Shown: in pieces, positions 2,831-8,654 of the stretch
How the letters are laid out: every line of letters starts with the position of its first letter
How positions within the stretch are numbered: position 1 is the stretch's first letter
NCBI GenBank assembly: GCA_021805955.1
Contig: JAJZDO010000739.1
Span: 1 to 12,519 of the forward strand
DNA: 12,519 bases
Source: Acidobacteriota bacterium
GTDB lineage: Bacteria; Acidobacteriota; Terriglobia; Terriglobales; Acidobacteriaceae
Direction: 5' to 3'
The notes under the pieces: model-generated
What the model saw: only the letters and a program-made list of their open reading frames with translations
Told to the model about the DNA's origin: nothing
Database searches by the model: none
Translations under genes and position numbers: made by a program

Positions 2831-3420
2831 CGTGATTCGTCGCGCTTGCGCGGCTCCGATCGTACCTTATTTTCCCGTGCGCTTATGTATGATCCGATGC
2901 CTGCACAACGCGAGCGAGATGCTCGCAGCGCACATGTCGATTTTGAGGCCGCCGTACCTAGCCGACCGGTTACTTAGACGGGCGCTGCGGTAAAAAGTTG
3001 CGTTGAAACCAAAACCGCCCCACTAAGGCAGTTTGTGCGGCGGGTCACAGCGATGTGCAGGGGAAAGACTTAGTTCACCACGCCGGAAACCCTGGGCCAG
3101 TATCTGCTGATGGATTTTCTCTCCCGCAGTGTCAAGGTGAAGACTATTCATTGAATTTACCTACCGGGGACCGTCTTATCAAGAAGGCCGTAGCATGAAT
3201 CGTACGCGGCCCACCTGTTTCTTGCTCACCTTCACATGACGCTTCCCATGTGGTAGAGGGAAAAACTCCGGTTTATCATGCTGAGTTCCCGTTTTTGATG
3301 CGCTTATCGACCGCTTGGTTTTCTTCCATTCGAATTTTACGTTGATTGCATGCATATGAATTCTCAAAATCAGTAGAAAACCATTCCCGCGATGCACTAA
3401 TCTCCATACTTGAGAGGGAG
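2831..3420. other. gene-poor spacer between divergent secreted-protein genes
   Basis: About 590 bases separate two divergently transcribed genes for exported proteins. No open frame has a ribosome site together with protein-like composition, and I found no tRNA, strong terminator hairpin or riboswitch I recognise. The space is larger than needed for two promoters, so it may hold long leaders or the remains of a lost gene. One candidate promoter at the right end is listed separately. Confidence 0.5.
3342..3370 (+). promoter_or_regulatory. candidate sigma-70-like promoter for the repeat protein
   Basis: TTGATT (3342-3347) and CAAAAT (3365-3370) are separated by 17 bases, close to the housekeeping consensus, in an AT-rich pocket about 60 bases before the start codon. 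An 8-base palindrome TGCATGCA (3347-3354) lies between the boxes. This is suggestive only. Confidence 0.35.
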
Positions 3421-3426
3421 AAGGAG
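3421..3426 (+). promoter_or_regulatory. ribosome binding site that fixes the start of the repeat protein
   Basis: AAGGAG lies 6 bases before the ATG at 3433. The same frame is open further upstream, to 3346, but only 3433 has this site and is followed at once by a signal peptide. Confidence 0.85.
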
Positions 3427-3432
3427 TCGAAT

Positions 3433-4752
3433 ATGTTGCGCCCGCGGCAAGGAATAGGCAGAAGCCCATACGCATGGGTCATCTTGATGGTTCCCACTGT
3501 CCTGGCGGGAACCATTTTTGCTGCCAGCACACACACATCACAGCCGGCAACCGCTGGCGTCGGCCAGCAGATGGGGACCATTTGCAAATTCACAACCGGA
3601 CCGAGATCCGGCGACACTCAGGACTACGAGCCGATGCAAGCCCCGCTGAACTCGCCCTGCTCCGACGGAGAAGGCAGCAGCGGAAACATTATTGCCGCGT
3701 CCCCGGCAGCGATTGCCGCTCCTGCGGTAGCGAGGGCGGCGGACACCCCCGGCACATCCCTACAGTCGGGATCGGTCTGCAAGTTCACGTCCGGACCAAA
3801 GGCCGGGAGCATGCACGATTATGCGCCCATGCACGCGCCGCTAGGCACGGCCTGCGACGACGGGGCGGGAAGCAACGGCGTGATTGTCGCCGCGCAACCA
3901 ATGGGAACAGTCTGTAAGTTTATGTCCGGACCGAAGTCCGGGAGCCAGCGCGATTACGCTCCCATGCATGCGCCGTTGGGCACGGCCTGCGACGACGGGG
4001 CGGGAAGCAGCGGTGTGATTGTCGCCGCGCAACCAATGGGAACAGTTTGTAAGTTTATGTCCGGACCCAAGGCGGGAGGCACCCAGGATTATGCTCCAGT
4101 GCATTCACCGCTGAATACGCCCTGCGACGACGGGGCAGGGAGCAGCGGCATCATCGTTGCCGCTCCACAGATGGGGTCGGTCTGCAGGTTCACGGCGGGG
4201 CCGAAAACGGGAAGCTCCCATGATTACGCTCCCATGCATGCGCTGCTGAATACACCGTGCAATGACGGGGCGGGAAGCAGCGGCATCATCGTCGCCGCGA
4301 CAATTCCAGACACTCCGTCCTGCGTTCCTCCCTCCGCATGTAAAGGGACGCCGAATTCGGCTGCGCCAAGCGCGACGGAAGGGGCGAGCACGACCGCAAC
4401 GGTCGCCAGCGTGCACGCATCCGGTAGCGCCCCGCGGCCCGGGCTGGGTTCCGTCTGCAAGTTGACTTCCGGTCCGAAGGCAGGGACCACCTACGACTTC
4501 GCTCCCATGCAGGCGGCCATCGGAGCACCGTGCAATTACGGTGCAGACAACACGGGCACAATTATTGCGGGGACAGCGCCGCCTCCGCCGTCACCGAAGC
4601 CGGCTGCGTCTACGCCCGTGATGGGGTCAGTTTGCAGTTTCACTTCCGGGCCGCTGGCCCTGACCACCGCCGACTTCTCTCCCAAGCGCGCGTCTCTCGG
4701 TACCCCGTGTACCGATGGGCATGGGAGTCACGGAGTGATCGTCGAGCATTGA
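3433..4752 (+). CDS. secreted protein of seven Cys-paired 43-residue repeats, unknown function
   Basis: 439 residues, family not recognised. Residues 1 to about 31 form a signal peptide (basic n-region, hydrophobic core 14-30), so the product should leave the cytoplasm. The rest is seven repeats at residues 47-88, 112-154, 157-199, 202-244, 247-289, 338-380 and 397-438. The approximate repeat pattern is MGxVCKFxSGPKxG, then DYAPM, then PLxxPCxDGxGSxGxIVAA. Each repeat has two Cys exactly 25 residues apart, 14 in all, suggesting one disulfide per repeat. Repeats 2-5 are tandem with an exact 45-residue (135-bp) period. The others are separated by Ala/Thr/Ser- or Pro-rich linkers, one of which holds an extra Cys pair (297 and 303). 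There is no membrane anchor, LPxTG or sorting domain after the last repeat. Adhesive, structural or inhibitor roles are possible, but none is shown. It stands alone on its strand. Confidence 0.8.
   Translation: MLRPRQGIGRSPYAWVILMVPTVLAGTIFAASTHTSQPATAGVGQQMGTICKFTTGPRSGDTQDYEPMQAPLNSPCSDGEGSSGNIIAASPAAIAAPAVARAADTPGTSLQSGSVCKFTSGPKAGSMHDYAPMHAPLGTACDDGAGSNGVIVAAQPMGTVCKFMSGPKSGSQRDYAPMHAPLGTACDDGAGSSGVIVAAQPMGTVCKFMSGPKAGGTQDYAPVHSPLNTPCDDGAGSSGIIVAAPQMGSVCRFTAGPKTGSSHDYAPMHALLNTPCNDGAGSSGIIVAATIPDTPSCVPPSACKGTPNSAAPSATEGASTTATVASVHASGSAPRPGLGSVCKLTSGPKAGTTYDFAPMQAAIGAPCNYGADNTGTIIAGTAPPPPSPKPAASTPVMGSVCSFTSGPLALTTADFSPKRASLGTPCTDGHGSHGVIVEH
3571..4746 (+). repeat. seven coding repeats, partly exact 135-bp tandem
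   Basis: Copies start at 3571, 3766, 3901, 4036, 4171, 4444 and 4621. From 3766 to 4299 the period is exactly 135 bp. The segments around 3844-3938 and 3979-4073 differ at only about four positions by eye, so at least one duplication is recent. The first and the last two copies are more diverged and separated by linkers. Confidence 0.9.
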
Positions 4753-5495: not shown

Positions 5496-8400
5496 CTACT
5501 GAATATCGAACTGCTCCGGATGCAGGCTGGCATCGCTTTTGACGATGACGGTCTTACCGGACATTTCTTCCATCTCGCTCAACCAGCGTCCATTTTGTAG
5601 CTTGAGCTGCTTGACGACTTCCGGATTGACTCGCAGTAGAACATCGCCACGATCAATCTGGCGATACATTTTGCGCAACTCGACATAAATCTCATTGCAT
5701 ACCGTCAAAGGACCCTTGACCATGCCAGTTCCCGAGCATACCGAGCACGGCACGGATAGGGTGCGCTCCAGAGACTGCTTGACGCGTTTGCGTGTGATGG
5801 CAACCAGGCCGAAGTCGTTGAACTGCAATACTTTGGAGGGAGCGCGATCGGACTTCAACGCTTCTTCCAGCGCCACCATCACCCGATTGCGGTTTTTGCG
5901 TTCATCCATGTCGATGAAGTCGATGACGATGATGCCGCCCAGATCGCGCAGGCGAATCTGGCGAACAATTTCCGGAATGGCATCGAGGTTGGTCCTGAGG
6001 ATGGTATCTTCCAGGCGCGCCGTTTTGCCCACGTATTTGCCAGTATTGATGTCGATGGCGACCAAGGCTTCGGTCTGGTTGATGACGATGGAGCCGCCGG
6101 ATTTGAGCCACACCTTGGAGTGGAGCGCGTTGTTGATTTCTTCCTGAATGCCGAACTGCTCGAACAGCGGCGTTTCCTTGGTATAAAGCTTGACGCGGCG
6201 AACCAGGGAGGGCTCGAAGCGACCGAGGAAGCGCAGGACACGTTCGTAGTCGGCTTCGGTGTCGACCCAGATGGACGAGAAATTATCGGTGACCTGATCG
6301 CGCAGCACGCGTTCCACTAGGCTGAGATCGTGATAGATCAGAGCCGGGGGCTTGGCATTTTCTGTGCGCTGGCGAATCTCTGCCCACAAAGTGAGCAGGA
6401 AACGAATGTCGGCGCGAAGATCTTCTTCACTGGCGGTAGCAGCGGCAGTGCGAACAATAAAGCCACCTGAGGCCGTTCCCTTTTCGCTGAGCAAAATGTG
6501 CTTCAGACGCTGACGTTCCTCGTCGGAGGAAATTTTGCGGGAAACGCCGACGTGGTTGACCGTGGGCATAAAGACCAGGAAGCGACCGGGCAACGCGATA
6601 TGGCTGGTGATGCGCGCGCCTTTGCGGGCGATGGGCTCCTTGGCGATCTGGACCAGAATTTCCTGGTTGGGTTTTAGCAGGTCGGTGATGGCAGGCAGGT
6701 TGGTGGTCTGTGCGGTGGAGCGGCGCATGCGGCTATCGCCACGACCACCAGCATGACGCTGCTGGCCGCGATTTCCTCGCCGACCACTGCGGCCTCCGCC
6801 GGGACGAATGCGCACCGCATCTGCATTCGCAGGTTCATTTTCTTCCGCTTCGTCTTCCGCGGCATCCGAAACATCTTCCAATTCGATTTCGCCCAACTCT
6901 TCGGGAAAGTCTTCTTCCTCGCTGAAGTCTTCGTCAATTTCAGAACCCTCGGCCGCCGCTTCTCCGTTTTCATCGGCAAAACGTGTGCGCTGCTCGATGT
7001 GCCGGTCGCGCACCAATTCACTGAGCAGGCCGCTATCCATCTGCACATCCAGCGTCTCTTCGATTAGATCGTCATACTCGGCTTCGTCCTGCAGACTCTG
7101 GGCCGAGTAGGCTTCCGGCTCATCTTCGTCGATGATTTCTTCTTCGAGATCGCCGAGACCGGGATCGAAGATACGCTGATCCTGTTCGGATTCTTGTTGC
7201 TCTTGCACGTCGGTCGCGGTGTCTTCGGCGCTGCGTGCATGGACGGACTCGGTCACCTCGTCGCTGGAGGTACTGTCTTCCTCGGATGGCTGGGAATGCG
7301 TGGGCTGAACGATCGATGCTGTCTCGCCGAAGAAGGGCTCCGGTTGTGCAGCGGCTTCCGGGGTGGGCCCTTCAATGGCGTCGTGACTGAAAGATTGTGT
7401 CGCCGGCTCGGCTTCCGGCGCGGGCGGCTCGGCGACGCTGCTTTGGCGATAGGCGCTGGGAGTGGAGGGATCGAAGCGATAGGAGGCAGACGCTTCAGAG
7501 GGCTCAAAGTTTTCGGAAACCGCAGGTCCCTCCACTTCGTCCGCCACGGCGGAATCCGGTCGGGATGACATATCTGTGGAAGCAGGTGCGGACGCCTCGT
7601 GCTCAAAGACGGGCAAGGGAGTGTCGTCGATATGGACGTGGGTTTCGACGACAGGCGCAGGCGCGGGAGTTTCCTCAACAATCGGACTGACTTCAGCCGC
7701 AGGTGAGGAGAAGCTTTCCGCGTGCGAGGTTTCGCGCGAACGCTTGTGTCTGGAGAGCGATTCGCCGGGAAGCGCTCCGCTGCCATCCCATGCCAACGGT
7801 CCTACGACCATGGTGGAAGGCTGGAAGGTCGGTTGCTGCGCCGGTGCGGGTGTTTCCTTGTGTTGCGGGGTTACAGATGGCACGGGAGAATCCCCGCGAC
7901 GATACTTGGAGAGCGATTCGCCGGGAAGCACGACAGGCACCTGTTCGGACCGGAATGGCGCGGGTTGGGAACGTTCGTGCGAGGGCGCGGGCGAAACTGA
8001 ATGTGCCGCGAAATCCTGAGGCTCCCTTTGAAATTCGACTTCAGAGGGAGTTGCCTCGGATTCATACTGAATGTCTTCGGGCTTTTCGTTCGGATGTGAA
8101 CCGCTGGATACGTCCTGGGGATTGGTGGAAGACCTCTCTTGCCCACCTGATCCTTCACGCCCAGAAGCCCCGCCGCGACCGCGGCGACGACCGCGGCGAC
8201 CGCGCCAACGCCTTCCGCCCGAGCCTTCTTCCTCGCCAGAGGAACTGGCCGACGCGCTGGAAGCTTCGCGCCCAGGCTGATTCCCTGCCGGTTTTCTTTC
8301 GCTAAAAGAGCGGGATGCAGAGTCTTCTCCGGTGGTTTGGGGTTCGCTGTTGGAATGACCGTTGGACGCGCGTCCCTGGCTTCGAGAACCGGGCGCGAGG

Positions 8401-8654
8401 GAGACATATTCTTCGCCGTCTTCCTGTTCTTCGGCGAAATCGGTGACGTAGAGGAACGCATCGCGCTCCAAACCAATATCGACAAATGCCGACTGCATGC
8501 CGGGAAGAACGCGGGTGACTTTGCCTTTGTAGATGGAGCCGGCGAGGGTGTATTCGTTCTCGCGTTCGTAGTAGATTTCCGCGAGCTGGTCGTCTTCAAC
8601 AACCGCCAGCCGGGTTTCGTGCGGAGTGCTGGAGATATAAATTTCTTTTGTCAT
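5496..8654 (-). CDS. rne: ribonuclease E/G with very large insertion in its S1 domain
   Basis: 1052 residues; endoribonuclease that cuts single-stranded AU-rich RNA in mRNA decay and rRNA/tRNA processing. The N-terminus (MTKEIYIS) and first S1 half (about 36-73, GSIYKGKVTRVLPGMQSAFVDIG) are typical. The fold then breaks for about 578 residues and resumes at about 654. The 5'-sensor, RNase H-like and catalytic parts follow. The two metal-binding Asp of the family are present in AIDIN (Asp 868) and IVIDFID (Asp 912). The Zn-link motif CSVC (970, 973) is present in CxxCSGTG. The protein ends about 80 residues later, like RNase G, with no C-terminal degradosome tail. ATG 8654 has GAGG 4 bases upstream. 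It lies downstream of rodA on the same strand. Assignment to the Rne/Rng family is secure; E versus G is not decidable by name. Confidence 0.95.
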   Translation of the reverse strand: MTKEIYISSTPHETRLAVVEDDQLAEIYYERENEYTLAGSIYKGKVTRVLPGMQSAFVDIGLERDAFLYVTDFAEEQEDGEEYVSLAPGSRSQGRASNGHSNSEPQTTGEDSASRSFSERKPAGNQPGREASSASASSSGEEEGSGGRRWRGRRGRRRGRGGASGREGSGGQERSSTNPQDVSSGSHPNEKPEDIQYESEATPSEVEFQREPQDFAAHSVSPAPSHERSQPAPFRSEQVPVVLPGESLSKYRRGDSPVPSVTPQHKETPAPAQQPTFQPSTMVVGPLAWDGSGALPGESLSRHKRSRETSHAESFSSPAAEVSPIVEETPAPAPVVETHVHIDDTPLPVFEHEASAPASTDMSSRPDSAVADEVEGPAVSENFEPSEASASYRFDPSTPSAYRQSSVAEPPAPEAEPATQSFSHDAIEGPTPEAAAQPEPFFGETASIVQPTHSQPSEEDSTSSDEVTESVHARSAEDTATDVQEQQESEQDQRIFDPGLGDLEEEIIDEDEPEAYSAQSLQDEAEYDDLIEETLDVQMDSGLLSELVRDRHIEQRTRFADENGEAAAEGSEIDEDFSEEEDFPEELGEIELEDVSDAAEDEAEENEPANADAVRIRPGGGRSGRRGNRGQQRHAGGRGDSRMRRSTAQTTNLPAITDLLKPNQEILVQIAKEPIARKGARITSHIALPGRFLVFMPTVNHVGVSRKISSDEERQRLKHILLSEKGTASGGFIVRTAAATASEEDLRADIRFLLTLWAEIRQRTENAKPPALIYHDLSLVERVLRDQVTDNFSSIWVDTEADYERVLRFLGRFEPSLVRRVKLYTKETPLFEQFGIQEEINNALHSKVWLKSGGSIVINQTEALVAIDINTGKYVGKTARLEDTILRTNLDAIPEIVRQIRLRDLGGIIVIDFIDMDERKNRNRVMVALEEALKSDRAPSKVLQFNDFGLVAITRKRVKQSLERTLSVPCSVCSGTGMVKGPLTVCNEIYVELRKMYRQIDRGDVLLRVNPEVVKQLKLQNGRWLSEMEEMSGKTVIVKSDASLHPEQFDIQ
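6696..8429 (-). other. disordered insertion inside the RNase E/G S1 domain
   Basis: Residues 76-653 are low in hydrophobics and rich in Ser, Pro, Glu, Ala and Gln, so predicted disordered. In order: Ser/Gly region; Arg-rich patch with 9 Arg in residues 148-160; long Pro/Glu/Ser segment with two LPGESLS motifs (243-249 and 295-301); acidic blocks (about 502-535 and 571-607); second Arg/Gly patch with 11 Arg in residues 615-645, just before S1 resumes. Arg patches suggest RNA contact, and the short motifs and acidic blocks could be docking sites. I infer that it replaces the C-terminal scaffold of proteobacterial RNase E. Confidence 0.8.

What the first reader, a model, noticed from the sequence alone, without database searches (positions are those of the whole stretch)
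3433..4752. Secreted protein made of seven Cys-paired repeats, family not recognised
Seven copies of a unit of about 43 residues, each with two Cys exactly 25 apart and the pattern CKFxSGPKxG, DYAPM, PCxDGxGSxG, follow a signal peptide. The constant Cys spacing, even in diverged copies, implies a small disulfide-closed module under selection. No catalytic signature, anchor or known repeat class is evident to me. It could be a new extracellular repeat module, perhaps adhesive, matrix-forming or ligand-binding.
Basis: partly seen in the sequence, partly recalled or inferred. Interest (0 to 1): 0.75.

Follow-up and report, generated by a model that had tools for sequence, protein, structure and literature searches.

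The report
New two-cysteine beta module in tandem
A bacterium, probably an acidobacterium, carries a gene for a likely exported protein built from seven copies of a small two-cysteine module that the domain libraries searched do not list; the same module turns up in many other bacterial proteins, often as their last piece, so it looks like a reusable binding part.

Summary
The window encodes one 439-aa protein (3433-4752, +) with a signal-peptide-like start and seven units of 43 aa, each with two Cys 25 apart (0 of 10,000 shuffles reach seven). dN/dS between units is 0.11-0.39, with many dS values above 1. No Pfam, NCBIfam or PDB sequence match is credible. The only above-cut-off Pfam label on the module (PF22785, phosphatase, in two relatives) is a loop look-alike without catalytic Arg.

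A profile finds 246 copies in 63 proteins, both Cys kept wherever aligned. The module occurs in pure arrays, behind metallopeptidase-like domains, before a beta-lactamase-type domain, in small single-module proteins, and as the exact C-terminus of 29 of 29 proteins found with a C-terminal query. AlphaFold gives one unit pLDDT 90, four strands; no convincing PDB fold match.

Best reading: an uncatalogued, mobile, non-catalytic extracytoplasmic binding module, multiplied here for avidity. The family is well supported; export, disulfide and binding are inferred; the ligand is unknown.

The parts
3421..3426 (+). AAGGAG, likely ribosome-binding site of the module gene
   Evidence: sequence read directly
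3433..4752 (+). gene of the seven-module protein, 439 aa
   Evidence: 17 aligned relatives at 44-95% identity
3433..3525 (+). N-terminal signal-peptide-like segment (charged start, hydrophobic core; residues 1-31, end approximate)
   Evidence: sequence; hydropathy maximum at residue 16; no predictor run
3571..3699 (+). module 1
   Evidence: profile match, Cys pair
3766..3894 (+). module 2 (the unit whose fold was predicted)
3901..4029 (+). module 3
4036..4164 (+). module 4
4171..4299 (+). module 5
4321..4341 (+). linker Cys pair CVPPSAC, found as C[VT]PPSAC in 19 of the 27 proteins P0001-P0027
4444..4572 (+). module 6, diverged (CNYGADNTG) but 86-95% identical to the penultimate module of five same-genus relatives
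4621..4749 (+). module 7, last residues of the protein, 79-98% identical to the last module of five same-genus relatives
3028..3150 (+). decayed 3' end of a von Willebrand A (vWA) gene; in three same-genus relatives this gene lies directly upstream of the module gene
   Evidence: 78% nucleotide identity over 123 bases to the intact gene on another contig; tblastn match with one stop inside

Best explanation
The protein is an exported array of seven copies of a so far uncatalogued, autonomous beta-module of about 43 residues. Each copy is probably closed by one disulfide formed outside the cytoplasm. The module is a mobile, non-catalytic binding unit. In this protein seven copies, some on Ala/Pro/Ser-rich linkers, give multivalent (avidity) attachment to a repeated ligand of the cell envelope or the surroundings, such as a polysaccharide or a surface protein. 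In other bacteria one to four copies attach different proteins and enzymes to the same kind of ligand. Shown: the repeat, the selection, the conserved Cys pair, the portability. Predicted: the fold. Inferred: export, the disulfide, binding. Unknown: the ligand and whether the protein stays in the periplasm or reaches the surface.
For: Seven Cys pairs beyond chance and dN/dS 0.11-0.39 in the 20 of 21 unit pairs where it could be computed. Cys5 and Gly10 in 244 of 244, Cys30 and Gly38 in 246 of 246 aligned modules of 63 proteins; the positions above 90% are Cys, Gly, Pro and Asp, with no set that looks catalytic. One unit alone is predicted at pLDDT 90.4 with strands 4-9, 16-18, 29-31 and 37-41, and the same four strands return in all seven units of the full model. 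Portability: standalone arrays, C-terminal to eCIS_core and M48 domains, N-terminal to a beta-lactamase-family domain, single-module small proteins, and the exact C-terminus of 29 of 29 proteins P0033-P0061, in 10 groups by N-terminal sequence once linkers are removed. Copy number by profile is 7-9 in seven genes of two genera. In six genes of one genus the last module is 74-98% and the penultimate 81-100% identical between species, against 57-69% to the best sibling in the same protein.
Against: No ligand, surface location or disulfide was shown. Fold search gave no structure with a known binding role that stands above noise. Many dS values exceed 1, so the dN/dS ratios are rough. No match was found in 2 of 10 genomes of its genus (91% and 72% complete) and the module is rare beyond it: 14 of 300 family genomes, 2 of 297 phylum genomes, so most relatives do without it. 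Exact C-terminal placement in P0033-P0061 could also mean a targeting tag; the query for these was itself a C-terminal module. With linkers left in and a looser cut-off, 24 of the 29 N-terminal parts link into one group, so independence of the 10 groups is not certain.
Confidence: 0.5

Rival explanations
1. The array is a passive structural rod or spacer of the envelope or matrix: modules pack along the chain and matter for length and stiffness, not for binding.
For: Copy number varies between 7 and 9 in seven genes; long low-confidence linkers separate some modules; no other domain was found in the protein.
Against: Single modules at the ends of other proteins and a 105-aa single-module protein cannot serve as rods; the last two modules are held more constant than spacers need.
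Confidence: 0.2
2. The module is a C-terminal sorting or anchoring tag read by a dedicated export or attachment machine; the tandem proteins are an offshoot.
For: In 29 of 29 proteins P0033-P0061 the last module ends the chain with no tail; in the 25 with a single module the 60 residues before it hold 9-19 Pro.
Against: The five genomes reached by DNA pattern hold 1, 3, 1, 1 and 1 modules, one protein each, unlike the many clients of known tags (recalled). The module also sits near the N-terminus and mid-chain. In the two C-terminal cases whose surroundings were listed I saw no shared neighbour by eye; no family search of the neighbours was made.
Confidence: 0.15
3. The module inhibits or blocks extracellular enzymes, as multi-headed small disulfide inhibitors do.
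For: Small two-Cys beta unit in tandem arrays, and presence on metallopeptidase-like proteins.
Against: No resemblance to a known inhibitor in Pfam or PDB sequence searches; no variable reactive loop stands out by eye in the column counts.
Confidence: 0.08
4. The module is a tyrosine-phosphatase-like element, as Pfam PF22785 (Tc-R-P) scored on two relatives suggests.
For: PF22785 is above its cut-off in P0028 (33.7 bits) and P0030 (28.5 bits; cut-off 27).
Against: The match is 18 residues around C.DG.GS.G. The Arg six residues after Cys that this catalytic loop needs (recalled) is absent in 246 of 246 modules: Ser 217, Asn 26, Asp 3. Weak PDB phosphatase hits rest on the same loop.
Confidence: 0.01

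Closest known systems
Small extracellular binding modules carried in arrays or at enzyme ends (bacterial SH3b, LysM, carbohydrate-binding modules; recalled as a class)
   Same: Short, probably autonomous unit, present as arrays, as single copies, and behind Pro-rich linkers on other proteins.
   Different: No Pfam-A match for the window protein at E up to 10 and only one chance-level hit among 18 diverse modules; constant Cys pair; fold search gives no clear match.
PF22785 Tc-R-P, phosphatase family
   Same: 18-residue stretch with C-x5-small-x-G shape.
   Different: No catalytic Arg; 18 of 106 profile positions matched; the unit is 43 residues and repeated.
FHA domain
   Different: Profile-profile comparison with FHA domains from relatives gave probability about 0.1%; the FHA GR...S.xH signature (recalled) is not seen in the module.
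PEP-CTERM-type C-terminal sorting tags (recalled)
   Same: Same short piece at the end of different proteins.
   Different: No terminal hydrophobic segment; 1-3 copies in each of five genomes; also found N-terminally and in arrays.

Membership tests
PF22785 Tc-R-P / tyrosine phosphatases | catalytic Cys-x5-Arg loop (recalled) | tested here: not met
   residue at Cys+6 is Ser, Asn or Asp in 246 of 246 modules, never Arg
PF22785 Tc-R-P / tyrosine phosphatases | match over the length of the profile | tested here: not met
   positions 81-98 of 106 only, in P0028 and P0030
FHA (PF00498) | profile match | tested here: not met
   no Pfam family listed for the window protein at E up to 10; hhalign of three module profiles to an FHA alignment gave probability about 0.1%
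FHA (PF00498) | beta-sandwich of the full FHA fold | tested here: inconclusive
SH3-like / Tudor / KOW small barrels | barrel fold | tested here: inconclusive
C-terminal sorting tags such as PEP-CTERM | shared by many proteins of one genome (recalled) | tested here: not met
   1, 3, 1, 1, 1 matches in five genomes, one protein each; elsewhere at most two reading frames per genome, in G849 and G360
C-terminal sorting tags such as PEP-CTERM | dedicated processing machinery | not tested
   no search for partner genes was made
small extracellular binding modules as a class | autonomous fold | tested here: inconclusive
   single-unit AlphaFold pLDDT 90.4, pTM 0.64; prediction only
small extracellular binding modules as a class | binds a ligand | not testable with these tools
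   needs protein

The most novel reading that the evidence does not exclude
The module is a general plug for one common ligand of the envelope: acidobacteria string it into exported arrays that cross-link the envelope or matrix, while alphaproteobacteria (named in two loci, L049 and L050; the lineage of most C-terminal cases is not known) fuse one copy to the end of different exported proteins to dock them on the same socket. It would be a shared attachment principle across two phyla.
Probability: 0.2. Interest if true: 0.65.

Novelty: new variant of a known kind. Interest (0 to 1): 0.45.

Why it matters
A 43-residue unit with one Cys pair that moves between different proteins is an easy object for structure and binding work, and it would give a first handle on dozens of unannotated, probably exported proteins. 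It also shows that a current Pfam model (PF22785) labels at least two of these proteins as phosphatases on a loop without the catalytic residue.

Tried and rejected
Pfam, NCBIfam and PADLOC listed no family for the window protein. PHROGs lists three matches to P0001 (best E 2.1e-06, 17 residues of a 30-position profile of unknown function) and four to P0029 (best E 6.6e-05); they cover short stretches, mostly of families of unknown function, and were not followed.

Phosphatase reading (PF22785): rejected, no catalytic Arg. FHA reading: followed because sequence and fold both pointed there weakly; rejected after profile-profile comparison. That FHA alignment was built from 20 of the 24 loci listed in the script (of 30 given). 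One of the 20 rows (L093) was plainly a wrong extraction that I did not remove, and two rows (L095, L097) repeat the sequences of L083 and L087.

Sorting-tag reading: kept as a rival, disfavoured by low copy per genome. My first grouping of N-terminal parts (linkers kept, E 1e-4) put 24 of the 29 proteins P0033-P0061 in one group, six groups in all; the count of 10 comes from a second grouping with the 110 residues before the module removed and E 1e-6.

Papers: a search for six motif strings found none. Listings seen: 10 of 35, 1 of 1, 6 of 16, 3 of 3; no title listed names such a module. No paper was opened.

Full report
What is in the window. The gene at 3433-4752 (+) encodes 439 aa: a signal-peptide-like N-terminus and seven units of 43 aa with Cys exactly 25 apart, at residues 51, 116, 161, 206, 251, 342 and 401. 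Shuffling the protein 10,000 times gave at most four such pairs, mean 0.52. Between-unit dN/dS is 0.11 to 0.39 for the 20 of 21 unit pairs where it could be computed. Many dS values are above 1, so the ratios are rough, but the units look held by selection on the protein and not only by recent copying. In its own genome, which is 88% complete, only this gene carries the module, with seven matches.

Known families. No Pfam or NCBIfam family was listed at E up to 10 and no solved structure matched credibly (one hit, E 0.3). Eighteen diverse modules scanned one by one against Pfam gave one chance-level peptide hit. Two relatives (P0028, P0030) pass the cut-off of PF22785, a phosphatase family, over 18 residues. 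The residue six after the Cys, Arg in that enzyme class (recalled), is Ser, Asn or Asp in 246 of 246 modules, so I take the label to be wrong.

Relatives. The first protein search returned 32 relatives at E up to 0.001 (only the 7,995 candidates sharing most words were scored). A search with the C-terminal module of P0033 gave 29 proteins, P0033 included, the weakest at 3.3e-11, and a short query gave two. Over these 63 proteins, P0001 included, a profile finds 246 modules. Cys5 and Gly10 are present in 244 of 244 and Cys30 and Gly38 in 246 of 246 aligned cases. The profile was built from Cys-containing units, so some bias towards Cys is possible. Cys spacing is 25 in 180, 26 in 55, 28 in 7, and 23 and 22 once each, out of 244.

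Architectures. (a) Arrays alone: P0001-P0031 with 4-9 modules, a Terriglobia array of three in L047, P0062 with three and P0063 with two. (b) Four modules after an eCIS_core (DUF4157) domain in P0034 and three after an M48 peptidase domain in P0037, both domain matches just above the cut-off. (c) One module before a beta-lactamase-family domain in L046. (d) Single modules inside larger proteins that look membrane-anchored by eye (L003, L039/L048, P0032), and up to four modules in the protein of L041 after segments that look transmembrane. (e) Small single-module proteins: 105 aa in L077 and two in G849. (f) P0033-P0061: the last module ends the chain without a tail in 29 of 29 proteins; 25 have one module, with 9-19 Pro in the 60 residues before it. 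The query was itself a C-terminal module. With the 110 residues before the module removed, the N-terminal parts fall into 10 groups without BLAST similarity at E 1e-6; with linkers kept and E 1e-4, 24 of the 29 link into one group and six groups remain. By eye the largest groups may share a short Cys-containing segment, so not all 10 need be independent. Ten of these proteins scanned against NCBIfam gave no family, and of the ten scanned against Pfam only P0034 and P0037 gave one above its cut-off. Lineage is named for few: P0041 and the loci L049 and L050 are Alphaproteobacteria.

Distribution. The module occurs in 8 of 10 genomes of the window's genus, 14 of 300 of its family and 2 of 297 of its phylum sample. 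It is in 2 of 96 genomes of the alphaproteobacterial family of G570, 2 of 385 of the class of G569, and 4 of 15 genomes of the family of G849 with a wider profile, two of these only at E 0.005-0.01. A scan of the species-genome collection with one DNA pattern, limited to spacing 26 and to certain residues, gave five loci. The five genomes behind them hold 1, 3, 1, 1 and 1 modules. One of the five is titled Deltaproteobacteria, but the sample of its phylum (3 of 396) contains the same places as the searches of the window's own phylum and family, so the genome set places it with the window's phylum. The first-look filter of these searches scores only some candidates per genome, so counts are lower bounds.

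Evolution of the array. By profile, seven genes of two genera have 7-9 modules; G299 shows four in a 228-residue frame, perhaps a contig end. In six genes of the window's genus the last modules are 74-98% and the penultimate 81-100% identical between species, while their best sibling in the same protein is only 57-69% identical. Middle modules resemble each other across and within proteins. So the C-terminal end looks fixed while the middle expands and contracts.

Locus. In three of five same-genus relatives (L058, L059, L060) the module gene lies directly after a vWA-domain gene and an AAA gene on the same strand. In a fourth (L061) the AAA gene and DNA similarity to the vWA end are found. 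In the fifth (L062) no vWA was found in the stretch held. On the other side, four of five have an NtrC-type regulator (the L061 contig ends first; Pfam was run on the L059 copies). The window's gene instead lies between a gene without a Pfam match that looks like an outer-membrane barrel by eye (1968-2816, -) and, past a 113-aa reading frame, a ribonuclease E/G gene. A decayed 123-base end of the vWA gene is still there at 3028-3150, with an intact vWA gene on another contig. Either the module gene moved or was copied with a piece of its old neighbour, or the neighbour moved. The shared neighbours do not suggest a function.

Mechanism. A unit that folds alone (predicted), has one conserved Cys pair, no conserved catalytic set, and is reused in arrays, on enzyme-like proteins and at the ends of other proteins behaves like a binding module. 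Seven copies on flexible linkers suit multivalent binding. I hold this at about 0.5; a structural spacer, a targeting tag and an inhibitor are the rivals. Export and the disulfide are inferred from the hydrophobic start and the Cys pair.

Novelty. The libraries searched do not list this module (Pfam, NCBIfam and PADLOC for the window protein; Pfam for 18 modules), and the paper searches made (listings only) showed nothing on it. It is a new module family of a known kind (small extracytoplasmic modules), not a new kind of system.

Noticed in passing
window 3028-3150: Decayed 3' end of a vWA-domain gene upstream of the module gene, with an intact copy on contig C22 of the same genome; marks a rearrangement of the locus.
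   Followed up: partly
P0028, P0030: Pfam PF22785 (Tc-R-P phosphatase) passes its cut-off on these proteins through a loop look-alike without catalytic Arg: a likely false annotation.
   Followed up: yes
P0033-P0061: A set of 29 longer proteins, none with an informative name except P0034 (DUF4157), all ending in this module; one N-terminal group of 7 (870-944 aa) and one of 12 (596-770 aa) deserve their own look.
   Followed up: partly
P0018: Its last 181 residues hold no module and look by eye like the array read in another frame; described only.
   Followed up: no
window 5496-8654: Ribonuclease E/G with 687 residues before the matched catalytic domain, a long, partly acidic, low-complexity N-terminal part.
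   Followed up: no
G000:C302: Search output places the window at C302:19-12537, but the contig was returned as 10,264 bases ending inside the RodA gene.
   Followed up: no
L067:1-141 (G000:C22): Short palindrome-like repeats (such as GTTGCCAAGGCAAC) just downstream of the intact vWA gene, where three relatives carry the module gene.
   Followed up: no
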